This document shows positions 49,086 to 52,488 of a DNA stretch of 64,000 bases, one piece after another (positions within the stretch are counted from its first letter, which is position 1; every line of letters begins with the position of its first letter). The DNA is taken from contig QFDA01000006.1 in the NCBI GenBank assembly GCA_003130815.1, forward strand, positions 1 to 64,000, written 5' to 3'. Position numbers and translations under genes: made by a program. Origin of the DNA: Bacteroidetes bacterium SCGC AAA795-G10 (lineage in GTDB: Bacteria; Bacteroidota; Bacteroidia; Flavobacteriales; Flavobacteriaceae). Under the pieces are notes generated by a model. That model worked only from the letters and a program-made list of their open reading frames with translations, did not search any database and was not told the DNA's origin.

Positions 49086-49159
49086 GGCCCAGTAGTTCAA
49101 CTGGATAGAATATCAGATTTCGGCTCTGAGGGTTGGGGGTTCGAATCCTCCCTGGGTCA
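49086..49159 (+). tRNA. tRNA-Arg, anticodon UCG
   Basis: A 74-base cloverleaf: acceptor GGCCCAG (49086-49092) with CTGGGTC (49152-49158), D stem 49095-49098/49108-49111, anticodon stem 49113-49117/49125-49129 with loop TTTCGGC (anticodon TCG at 49120-49122), T stem 49135-49139/49147-49151 with loop TTCGAAT, discriminator A at 49159. CCA is not encoded. It reads CGA arginine codons. Confidence 0.93.
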
Positions 49160-49239
49160 CTTAATAAGTTTTAATTTTTTAATAAACTAGGATCAATTTT
49201 AGAATCTATAAATTTTTAAGTAAAAATTAATTTAATTCA

Positions 49240-52200
49240 TTGAACGATTTACATCAAATTGAAATTAAAGAGGCAAAGAAATTTCTTAAAATTCATTATG
49301 ATGTAGATGGCCAAATTAGCTCTTTGCCTGGCGAAATAGAACAAAATTTTAAGGTTGATACAAAAACAAATTGTTATGTATTTAAGATAAATAATAATTT
49401 TTCTGATAATAATTTTTTTGATTTTCAAGATAAACTTTTAACGCATCTGAGTGGATTTAATGCTCCTATTCACATAAAAAGTGTTGAAGGTAACCCATAT
49501 GTTTTATTAAATAGAAATGGGAGGAGGTTATGTTTACGATTACTTAATTGGATCTCCGGTAGAATATGGAAAAATGTAAATCCAAAAACTGAAGAATTAA
49601 GATATAAGTTGGGAGTATGTTGCGGAAGCATAACTCAAAAATTATTATCATTTAATCATCCTTTTTCAAATAGAAAATTTGAATGGGATCTGGCACAATC
49701 TATTTGGGTTAAAAAGTACTTAAGTAAATTCAATGATGAAAAAAAAGTAATAATAAACTTTTTTTTAGATCATTTTAAGGAAAATTATAACGAGTACAAA
49801 AATCTAAAAAAAAGTGTTGTACACAATGACGCAAATGATTATAACATTATCGTTAATTATGATTATTTAAATCCAAAAGTTGTTTCACTTATTGATTATG
49901 GAGATGCTATATATACGCAAATAATTAATGATTTAGCAATTACATGTGCATATGCAATTATGAATGTTGAAGATCCGCTTGATGCCGCTATTGCTATCAT
50001 CAAAGGTTATCATCTTAGCAATCCACTTGACGAAAATGATTTAAAATATTTATACAATCTTATTGGTATAAGGCTAATAATTTCAGTCACTAAATCAATG
50101 ATTGGTAGAACCAAAATGTCATTTAATGATTATCTATGGATAAGTGAAAAGTCCGCTTGGGGATTACTAAAAAAATGGGCAGCAGTAAATTCAGAATTTG
50201 CACACTATAGGTTTCGTGAGGCATGTGGTTTTGAGCCGCACCCTAATTACACAAATTTTTTAAAATGGAACAAGAATAACAAGACATCTTTGTTAACACT
50301 TTTTCCTTCTATATCTAAAACAAAGGTGCAAAACCTAAATTTAAGTTTTGAGAGCACATGGTTAGGGAGAAAAGAAGAGTTCGATGATTTAGATATTTTT
50401 CAACATAAAATAGCATTGATACAAAAAAAGTATGCTAATAAAATTATCGCAGGTGGATATTTAGAAAGTAGACCAATATATACCTCTAGGGAATATGATA
50501 GAATTGGCAATGAAGGGACCGAAAAAAGATGTCTTCATCTTGGTCTAGATTTTTGGCTTCCATCAAATACACCAATACATTTGCCTTATGATGGCCAAAT
50601 TAAAATAGTTTCAAATGATTTTGGGGAAAAAGCTTTTGGTCCAATGGTAATCGTTAAGCACAAAAACAAAAATTTTTCTTTTTACACTCTTTATGGTCAT
50701 TTAAGTGTAAAATCATTAACTAAAATTCGGGTAGGAGATAAATTAAAAAAGGGAGATTTTTTGGGCTGGATTGGCGATTCACATGAAAATGGTAATTGGG
50801 CACCACATCTTCATTTTCAAATATTACTCTCCCTTCTAAATATGGGTGAGAATTTTCCTGGCGTAGGTTACCAAAAGCATATAAAATCATGGAAGTCAAT
50901 ATGTCCAGAACCTGATTTGATTTTTTTAGAAGATACCTCAACAGCGGTCTCAAATGAGACTCAAAAAAAAATAATTATTGATAGGGAAAACACCTTAGGT
51001 AAAGGATTATCACTTCAATATAAAAATCCACTCCATATTGTAAGAGGTGAAGGTATATTTTTAATTGATAGGGATGGAAGAAATTATATGGACATGATAA
51101 ATAATGTTGCTCATGTAGGACATGAACATCCAGATGTTGTAAAGGCAGGACAATTACAAATGGGTCAGCTTAATACAAATTCTCGTTATTTACATCCAAA
51201 TATTACACGATTGGCAAAGAGATTAATAGCTACTTTACCCTCAGATCTTAGTATCGTTCATTTTGTTAATTCTGGAAGTGAAGCAAATGAACTCGCACTA
51301 AGAATGATAAAAACAGTCACAGGGTCAGATGAAATTTTAGTCTCTAAATATGGCTATCATGGAAATACTAAAAGCTGTATTAACATTAGTTCATACAAAT
51401 TTGATGGAAAAGGTGGAGAAGGCAAGCCAAACAGTACAAACGTTTTTCCTATACCTGACTCATATAGAGGGGTTTATCGTGGAGAAAATACTGCTAACAG
51501 CTACGTAAAAGAGATAGAAGCTCAAATAAAAATGCTAAAAAAGAAAAAAAAGAAGTTAGGTGGGTTAATTATAGAGCCTATAATATCTTGTGGTGGACAG
51601 GTAGAGTTACCTAAAGGATTTTTATCTAAAGCGTTTGATCTAGTAAAAAAGGAGAAAGGAATATGCGTTGTGGACGAGGTTCAAACAGGTTGTGGTAGAG
51701 TGGGTTCTCATTTTTGGGGCTTTCAATTGCACAGTGTAATTCCTGATATAGTAACAATTGGAAAACCACTTGGAAATGGCCATCCAGTTGCAGCAGTGGT
51801 TTGTAAAAACGAAATTGCAAATAAATTCAACAATGGAATGGAATTTTTTAACACATTCGGTGGAAATCCTGTTTCATGTGCAATAGCAAATAAAGTTTTA
51901 GAAATTGTACAAAATGAAAAACTTCAACAAAATGCTTTTAAAGTTGGAAATTTTTTAAAAAAGGGAATTAAAAAATTGGTTGAAAATTCAGCTAATTATT
52001 TTAATGTAAGAGGTCAAGGCCTTTTTCTTGGAATTGAATTTGTTGATGAAAATCTTTTACCCAAGGCTGATAAAGCCAACTATGTAGTAGACAGAATGAA
52101 ATTTTTTGGTATTCTTTTAAGTACTGATGGACCAGATAAAAATGTTATAAAAATTAAACCTCCTCTTATTTTTTCAATAGATAACGCGAAATTTTTTTTA

Positions 52201-52245
52201 AAACTTTTTTCTAAAATTATCAACGAGGACTTCATGTCAAAATGA
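49240..52245 (+). CDS. Fusion: APH-type kinase - M23 peptidase - class III aminotransferase/phospholyase
   Basis: 1001 residues in one uninterrupted frame. Domain 1 (about 1-345) is an aminoglycoside-phosphotransferase-like small-molecule kinase: catalytic loop [13 protein letters not shown] (Asp197, Asn202) and metal site IDYGD (Asp219). Domain 2 (about 385-560) is an M23 (LytM) metallopeptidase fold with all expected zinc ligands, HLGLD (His433, Asp437) and HLH (523-525). Domain 3 (about 575-1001) is a class III PLP enzyme with VDEVQTG (Asp812) and the PLP lysine Lys842 in [11 protein letters not shown]. Known relatives are the hydroxylysine kinase/phosphohydroxylysine phospholyase and ethanolamine-phosphate phospholyase families, where kinase and PLP lyase act in sequence; that is the best guess here. 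No signal peptide is visible. The start is the TTG at 49240. Confidence 0.88.
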
Positions 52246-52308: not shown

Positions 52309-52488
52309 ATGAGCGAGTTAGTTATTGTTCTTATCGGTGCAGTTATTATAGTAGGTGGAGTTATTTTATACGCTGTTATTTCAACTGCAACTGGATTAGA
52401 AGAAGATGAGAATCAAAATTATATTCCGGATTGGATCGAAAGAAGATTTCCAAAAATCTTCAAGGGAAGCAAAGACCTAGATAAATAA
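52309..52488 (+). CDS. Small single-pass membrane protein, unknown
   Basis: A 59-residue ORF from ATG 52309 to TAA 52488. It has a hydrophobic segment at about residues 4-25 (LVIVLIGAVIIVGGVILYAV) and a charged tail ending with IPDWIERRFPKIFKGSKDLDK split around residue 50. The clear topology, ATG start and a GC and codon pattern like its neighbours favour a real gene. It lies alone between the fusion gene and the OmpA gene. I do not recognise its family. Confidence 0.65.
   Translation: MSELVIVLIGAVIIVGGVILYAVISTATGLEEDENQNYIPDWIERRFPKIFKGSKDLDK

What the first reader, a model, noticed from the sequence alone, without database searches (positions are those of the whole stretch)
49240..52245. 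Three-domain fusion of a sugar/amino-alcohol-type kinase, an M23 peptidase fold and a PLP phospholyase
One uninterrupted 1001-codon frame joins an APH-type kinase (Asp197, Asn202, Asp219 all present), an M23 domain with all zinc ligands (His433, Asp437, His523, His525) and a class III PLP enzyme (Asp812, Lys842). In animals, hydroxylysine kinase and phosphohydroxylysine phospholyase belong to the same two families as domains 1 and 3 and act one after the other, as does ethanolamine-phosphate phospholyase. So the inference is a substrate-channelling enzyme: the kinase phosphorylates an amino alcohol and the PLP domain removes phosphate and ammonia. The purpose of a cell-wall-type peptidase domain in the middle, in a protein without a visible export signal, is unexplained: it could process amino-alcohol-containing peptides or be a binding module.
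Basis: partly seen in the sequence, partly recalled or inferred. Interest (0 to 1): 0.8.

Follow-up and report, generated by a model that had tools for sequence, protein, structure and literature searches.

The report
Likely three-in-one hydroxylysine-degrading enzyme
One long bacterial protein joins a kinase, a zinc-peptidase domain and a vitamin-B6 lyase, and the genes that travel with its relatives suggest that it helps bacteria eat hydroxylysine, the sugar-bearing amino acid of animal collagen.

Summary
In detail: one 1001-codon frame (TTG start) with Pfam APH, M23 and Aminotran_3 domains and every named residue present. The architecture is catalogued: NCBIfam PRK06148, 'hypothetical protein'; from recall, Veiga-da-Cunha 2012 used such fusions to find the human hydroxylysine enzymes. 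Domain 3 groups with the phospholyases ETNPPL and A1RDF1, apart from transaminases (100/100). New here is the substrate evidence: 38 of 80 related loci carry glycosidase genes (GH63/GH2) or at least two hydroxyproline-catabolism genes nearby. In 296 Bacteroidota genomes a hydroxyproline-entry gene occurs in 23 of 27 with the fusion against 43 of 259 without it or its shorter relatives; the control urocanase shows no link (18/27, 163/259). Best reading: a cytosolic 5-hydroxylysine kinase plus phosphohydroxylysine phospholyase for collagen breakdown. The M23 zinc site is intact in 105 of 107 chains, and a free-standing form seldom shares a genome with the fusion (1 of 60); it is probably an active peptidase, target unknown. 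Substrate and channelling are inferred.

The parts
49240..50274 (+). Domain 1 (about residues 1-345): APH-fold kinase, likely 5-hydroxylysine kinase
   Evidence: Pfam APH 31-251; D197, N202, D219 in 107/107 aligned proteins
50281..50964 (+). Domain 2 (residues 348-575): M23 metallopeptidase fold with an extra N-terminal cap (window [12 protein letters not shown], residues 405-416); Pfam core at residues 433-528
50953..52242 (+). Domain 3 (residues 572-1001): class III fold-type I PLP enzyme of the phospholyase clade; Lys842 at 51763-51765
   Evidence: Pfam Aminotran_3; 47% identical to human ETNPPL over 406 columns; tree
49086..49160 (+). tRNA-Arg(tcg) immediately upstream; not part of the system
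   Evidence: ARAGORN

Best explanation
The protein is most likely a cytosolic enzyme for 5-hydroxylysine that comes from animal collagen. In relatives, apparently exported GH63 and GH2 or GH42 enzymes would strip the Glc-alpha1,2-Gal sugar from hydroxylysine, and the amino acid (or a short peptide) would enter the cell. Domain 1 phosphorylates the 5-hydroxyl. Domain 3 then eliminates phosphate and ammonia with PLP to give 2-aminoadipate 6-semialdehyde, which feeds lysine-type catabolism (pathway from general knowledge). The M23 domain is probably an active zinc peptidase in the cytosol that frees amino acids from small peptides; its target is a guess. Shown here: the architecture, intact site residues, the phospholyase clade, gene linkage and genome co-occurrence in relatives. 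Inferred: the substrate, the order of steps, M23 activity and any channelling.
For: (1) The PLP domain lies in a 41-row clade (100/100) with ETNPPL and A1RDF1, outside the other class III enzymes. (2) In 80 Bacteroidota loci, 24 have a YgjK-like GH63 gene (21 of them directly upstream, mostly at gaps of 0-11 bp) and 24 a GH2 beta-galactosidase gene; 18 have at least two of five hydroxyproline-catabolism families; 38 have either kind. Collagen carries Glc-alpha1,2-Gal-beta1,5-Hyl (PMC8537180, passages). (3) Other groups agree: DHDPS, 4-hydroxyproline epimerase and DAO genes directly before the fusion in 3 of 5 fetched f43 loci (L123, L125, L126); galactokinase, DHDPS-family and fusion genes in a row in 5 of 7 f51 loci (the other two are cut by a contig end); GH63, GH42 and kinase-PLP in 3 of 3 loci of one genus with the M23-less form. 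(4) In 296 genomes, 4-hydroxyproline epimerase or trans-3-hydroxyproline dehydratase is in 23/27 against 43/259 (p=6e-13); genus level p=4e-4 and 6e-4 for each gene; control urocanase 18/27 against 163/259 (p=0.83). (5) The window's own genome has DAO, epimerase, ALDH and DHDPS genes side by side (L111). (6) Three rhizobial copies sit beside amino-acid ABC transporter genes, two of them with an Lrp/AsnC regulator gene.
Against: The window's own genus shows neither the GH63 gene (0 of 40 relatives at E<=1e-50; the same query rings in other genomes) nor a linked hydroxyproline set. 42 of 80 loci lack both kinds of marker (some are cut by contig ends). Five fetched three-domain loci (L120, L121, L124, L127, L130) show none of the marker genes, and 3 of 27 fusion genomes lack all three. 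GH63 is linked weakly at genome level (4/37 against 4/259, p=0.01) and not for three-domain genomes alone (1/27, p=0.39). Related genomes are not independent samples. No residue test here separates phosphohydroxylysine from phosphoethanolamine lyases, and the nearest solved relative, human ETNPPL, is named for phosphoethanolamine. The kinase has no PDB sequence match at E<=1.
Confidence: 0.68

Rival explanations
1. Ethanolamine (or another amino alcohol) is the substrate: domain 1 makes phosphoethanolamine and domain 3 yields acetaldehyde, ammonia and phosphate.
For: The nearest solved relative is human ETNPPL (6tor, 399 bits; first in the fold search), which falls among the fusions in the tree.
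Against: Context genes point to collagen amino acids and sugars. Ethanolamine ammonia-lyase EutB occurs in 0 of 37 genomes with the fusion or its shorter relatives and in 8 of 259 others, though alternative routes could exclude each other. Amino-acid transporter genes adjoin three rhizobial copies.
Confidence: 0.17
2. A cell-wall recycling enzyme: the M23 domain cuts peptidoglycan peptides and the other two domains act on a wall-derived amino compound.
For: The M23 fold is closest to wall peptidases, and the window gene follows a mur/fts cluster.
Against: A tRNA-Arg lies between. Homologues of the neighbouring FtsA, FtsZ and YqeY genes occur in 5 of the 80 loci only (L016, L017, L022, L055, L083); a Mur-ligase-type relative also lies in L080. 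I annotated only part of the neighbour clusters. GH63 and beta-galactosidase neighbours remain where the chain has no M23 (L129, L152, L153).
Confidence: 0.06
3. Domain 3 is an ordinary class III transaminase and the fusion has another role.
For: General family resemblance: 25-29% identity to other class III enzymes and 32% to a decarboxylase.
Against: The tree separates it at 100/100. L685, W826, N846 and F870 are fixed in all 41 clade members and occur in at most 1 of 11 others at each site.
Confidence: 0.03
4. The M23 domain is only a binding or spacer module.
For: Kinase and PLP domains also occur directly fused without it (L129, L147, L148, L152-L154), and its zinc site is degenerate in the PRK06149-type L122 and in Streptomyces L131.
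Against: All five site residues are kept in 105 of 107 chains and in 7 of 7 stand-alone relatives examined, which is not expected of a spacer.
Confidence: 0.2

Closest known systems
NCBIfam PRK06148 (NF004799), 'hypothetical protein'
   Same: Full-length match, positions 9-1010 of 1015, 1030 bits; same layout
   Different: Below the curated cut-off of 1128; the family carries no function
NCBIfam PRK06149 (NF004800), aminotransferase
   Same: Matches end to end at 605 bits, cut-off 973
   Different: Two proteins that I take for this type (L122, L131; not scored against the model here) have a degenerate M23 site
Human ETNPPL (6tor), ethanolamine-phosphate phospho-lyase
   Same: 47% identity, same clade, TM-score 0.91 on the target's length
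   Different: Single-domain chain of 499 residues; named for phosphoethanolamine
A1RDF1 phospholyase (5g4i), Arthrobacter aurescens
   Same: 36% identity, same clade
   Different: Chain of 446 residues without kinase or M23; groups with split kinase + PLP gene pairs (L132, L133)
Animal hydroxylysine kinase and phosphohydroxylysine phospholyase (recalled; title of Veiga-da-Cunha 2012 seen in a reference list)
   Same: Same two-step logic in the same two superfamilies
   Different: Separate animal proteins with no M23; neither sequence was available here
M23 peptidases (ShyA, lysostaphin, LytM)
   Different: Those act outside the cytosol on cell walls (recalled); this one lies inside a chain without export signal and has an N-terminal cap

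Membership tests
PRK06148 (NF004799) | Kinase-M23-PLP layout over the whole model | tested here: met
PRK06148 (NF004799) | Score at or above the curated cut-off (1128) | tested here: not met
   1030 bits; the best same-genus copy scores 1115, while 18 of 296 Bacteroidota genomes pass
PLP phospholyases (ETNPPL/A1RDF1 group) | Groups with known phospholyases and not with transaminases | tested here: met
   100/100
PLP phospholyases (ETNPPL/A1RDF1 group) | PLP lysine and aspartate | tested here: met
   K842 and D812 in 107/107
PLP phospholyases (ETNPPL/A1RDF1 group) | Release of phosphate and ammonia from a phosphorylated amine | not testable with these tools
   Needs an assay
Class III transaminases | Falls among transaminases in a tree | tested here: not met
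   labels are best NCBIfam models, some below their cut-offs, and 3 of the 10 comparison rows were not labelled
Hydroxylysine kinase (HYKK) group | APH fold with HxDxxxxN and a later Asp (motif names recalled) | tested here: met
Hydroxylysine kinase (HYKK) group | Closer to HYKK than to other APH kinases | not tested
   No HYKK sequence was available; no PDB sequence match at E<=1
M23 metallopeptidases | HxxxD and HxH zinc ligands and the further His (motif names recalled) | tested here: met
   H433, D437, H487, H523, H525
M23 metallopeptidases | M23 fold | tested here: met
M23 metallopeptidases | Peptidase activity | not testable with these tools
   Needs an assay

The most novel reading that the evidence does not exclude
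One polypeptide performs three chained steps on collagen remnants: the M23 domain cuts hydroxylysine out of short peptides in the cytosol, the kinase phosphorylates it and the PLP domain splits off phosphate and ammonia. In one branch of Bacteroidota the gene split, the M23 leaving as a free enzyme and the kinase-lyase pair staying fused, so that the peptidase is kept either in the chain or beside it.
Probability: 0.25. Interest if true: 0.75.

Novelty: new member of a known kind. Interest (0 to 1): 0.55.

Why it matters
The family is catalogued as 'hypothetical protein', and database records call its members 'aminotransferase class III-fold' enzymes. Hydroxyproline and collagen-type sugar genes around it give a specific, testable substrate and would place bacterial hydroxylysine use in collagen turnover, marine turnover included. 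The M23 subfamily without export signal, fused or free, had no function that I could find; its partner genes now suggest what to test.

Tried and rejected
Paper searches (all 10 used). In the listings that I saw (titles and starts of abstracts; one search listed 25 of 69, 10 of 19, 15 of 20) no paper was on a bacterial hydroxylysine pathway, on this fusion or on a collagen-sugar locus. The one paper with the term PRK06148 (PMC8249566) was seen in the listing only. Of PMC8154272 and PMC8537180 I saw passages only. Most subscription papers are not held, so this does not show that nothing is in print.

GH63 as a genome-wide marker was weak. Ethanolamine ammonia-lyase as a marker was negative. The mur/fts neighbourhood as a functional clue was set aside. 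The M23 tree suggests that the stand-alone M23 arose by gene splitting (95/93 with the Bacteroidota fusions), but the AU test does not reject all active fused forms as one clade (p=0.146), and the outgroup rows are very long branches. Splitting is an idea only. In the kinase tree the M23-less forms are one clade (96/89); in the PLP tree they fall in two places with modest support, so one or two losses are possible. An early ORF picker chose wrong frames in L123 and L124; tblastn replaced it for those and eleven other loci. No active-site distances were measured, because only sequences, not model coordinates, were listed in the script box.

The 107 proteins include the window and leave out copies covering 930 or fewer residues. 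Two of the 60 genomes (G344, G364) were ambiguous and were counted both ways. Neighbour families were identified on representatives and spread to their clusters by BLAST.

Full report

The architecture is known. NCBIfam has a full-length model, PRK06148, named 'hypothetical protein'; the window protein matches 9-1010 of 1015 at 1030 bits, under the curated cut-off of 1128. A genome scan kept the best 80 of 561 confirmed relatives, all with titles of Bacteroidota groups. Among plasmids, 66 of 377 matching records cover at least 80% of the query; the 40 best listed are rhizobial, at about 36% identity, and a Streptomyces plasmid matches end to end at 27%. From recall, the abstract of Veiga-da-Cunha 2012 (J Biol Chem) already says that bacterial homologues form bi- or tri-functional proteins with a kinase, and that this led to the human hydroxylysine enzymes. 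That paper is not held; only its title was seen, in the reference list of PMC8154272.

Domain 3 is a phospholyase by descent. A tree of 52 sequences puts the fusions, the M23-less and split forms, ETNPPL and A1RDF1 in one clade of 41 (100/100). Ten other class III enzymes from fetched loci and dialkylglycine decarboxylase lie outside. Seven of the ten were labelled by best NCBIfam model: ornithine (2), acetylornithine-type (2, below cut-off), GABA (below cut-off) and DAPA transaminases, and one 'hypothetical' subfamily. Several sites are fixed in the 41 and rare in the other 11, among them L685, W826, N846 and F870. The kinase tree is similar in outline, with the M23-less kinase-PLP proteins as one clade (96/89) beside the Bacteroidota three-domain proteins (99/98); the PLP tree puts them in two places with modest support. 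Three-domain proteins lie outside that group as well, so loss of the M23 is simpler than repeated gain.

The neighbours point to collagen. Of the 80 loci, 24 have a gene like E. coli YgjK (GH63) and 24 a GH2 beta-galactosidase gene, 26 either; 18 have at least two of five hydroxyproline-catabolism families; 6 have both kinds and 38 at least one. Flanks are cut by contig ends in some loci, so these are lower bounds. The families were identified on representatives. For trans-3-hydroxyproline dehydratase the best NCBIfam model is below its cut-off (381 against 540) and the best PDB match is named 'proline racemase'; the pyrroline-2-carboxylate reductase is above its cut-off (380 against 322); DAO, DHDPS and aldehyde dehydrogenase are Pfam assignments. 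By eye, the glycosidases carry lipoprotein-type or export signals and the fusion none. Collagen carries Glc-alpha1,2-Gal-beta1,5-Hyl (PMC8537180, passages). That YgjK prefers the Glc-alpha1,2-Gal unit is recalled and comes from no call.

Other lineages repeat this in part. Of five fetched f43 loci, three have DHDPS, 4-hydroxyproline epimerase and DAO genes directly before the fusion (L123, L125, L126); two show none (L124, L127). Of seven f51 loci, five have galactokinase, a DHDPS-family gene and the fusion in a row, the other two being cut by a contig end; all seven have an aminopeptidase P gene nearby. The f55 locus L116 has only the aminopeptidase P gene, and L120, L121 and L130 show no marker. 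In L128 the order is GH63, fusion, GH2. In three loci of one genus with the M23-less form the order is GH63, GH42, kinase-PLP (L129, L152, L153); the other M23-less loci were fetched with short flanks only. Three rhizobial copies sit beside an amino-acid ABC transporter gene (L096, L097, L134), two of them with an Lrp/AsnC regulator gene (L097, L134).

Co-occurrence with a control. In the same 296 Bacteroidota genomes, a fusion covering the whole model was found in 27 and shorter relatives (two-domain or PLP only) in 10. 4-hydroxyproline epimerase: 16/27, 5/10, 40/259. Trans-3-hydroxyproline dehydratase: 11/27, 4/10, 5/259. Either: 23/27, 6/10, 43/259 (p=6e-13 for 27 against 259). At genus level p is 4e-4 (11/17 against 24/115) and 6e-4 (6/17 against 5/115). 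Urocanase as control: 18/27, 9/10, 163/259, no link. EutB: 0/37 against 8/259. GH63: 1/27, 3/10, 4/259. Of the 16 three-domain genomes with the epimerase, 5 have it within about 2.5 kb of the fusion (G067, G123, G277, G280, G331; coordinates). Relatedness inflates these p values.

The window's own lineage. Its fusion sits after a tRNA-Arg and a mur/fts cluster, with an OmpA-family gene downstream. No GH63 was found in 40 relatives at E<=1e-50. A proline-racemase-family gene occurs in 22 of 25 genomes of the genus, and in the window's genome it lies in a DAO, epimerase, ALDH, DHDPS row (L111). So this lineage keeps hydroxyproline genes and the fusion, unlinked, without the GH63 gene.

The M23 domain. 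Its five site residues are kept in 105 of 107 chains; the exceptions are L122, a second copy in genome G051 that I take for the PRK06149 type, and the Streptomyces copy L131. The same M23, cap included in most, exists as free proteins of about 215-260 residues, with all site residues in 7 of 7 examined. In 60 Flavobacteriaceae genomes of different genera, 18 have it fused and 23 free, 1 of these both, and 2 are unclear; about 7 would be expected to have both (p=4e-4). Of seven genomes with a two-domain-length chain (G063, G164, G177, G178, G241, G283, G323; frames), five have the free M23 and G177 and G178 do not. It also occurs where no fusion relative was found at the threshold used (G059, G122), so it has a use of its own. 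In G241 it lies between an M20 peptidase gene and an alanine-racemase-like gene. I read it as an active cytosolic peptidase; a role on hydroxylysine peptides is a guess.

Verdict. Hydroxylysine is the most likely substrate. The layout is a catalogued one, so novelty is limited to the substrate evidence and the fused-or-free M23.

Noticed in passing
L161:7103-7777 (-), and similar in L159, L160, L162-L165: A free-standing M23 protein without visible signal peptide, all zinc-site residues present, closely related to the M23 domain of the fusion.
   Followed up: partly
L122:8008-10953 (+): A second fusion, apparently of the PRK06149 type, in genome G051 that also has the ordinary one (L120); its M23 site is degenerate.
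   Followed up: partly
Tree: Human ETNPPL falls among the bacterial fusion proteins (33-row fork, 91/93), so the animal enzyme may descend from a bacterial gene of this kind.
   Followed up: no
Plasmid records: 42 Klebsiella plasmid records match the query at E<=1e-60; the six listed match over the PLP domain only and are annotated as aspartate aminotransferase family protein.
   Followed up: no
window 52309-52488 (+): A short frame (59 residues given to Pfam, no match) with a hydrophobic start, between the fusion and the OmpA-family gene.
   Followed up: no
G012:C73:56218-58440: In one genus member the fusion is broken (two matching pieces, a stop reported in one); described only.
   Followed up: no
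G130, G154, G268, G312: Four genomes have the YgjK-like GH63 gene without the fusion or its shorter relatives at the thresholds used.
   Followed up: no
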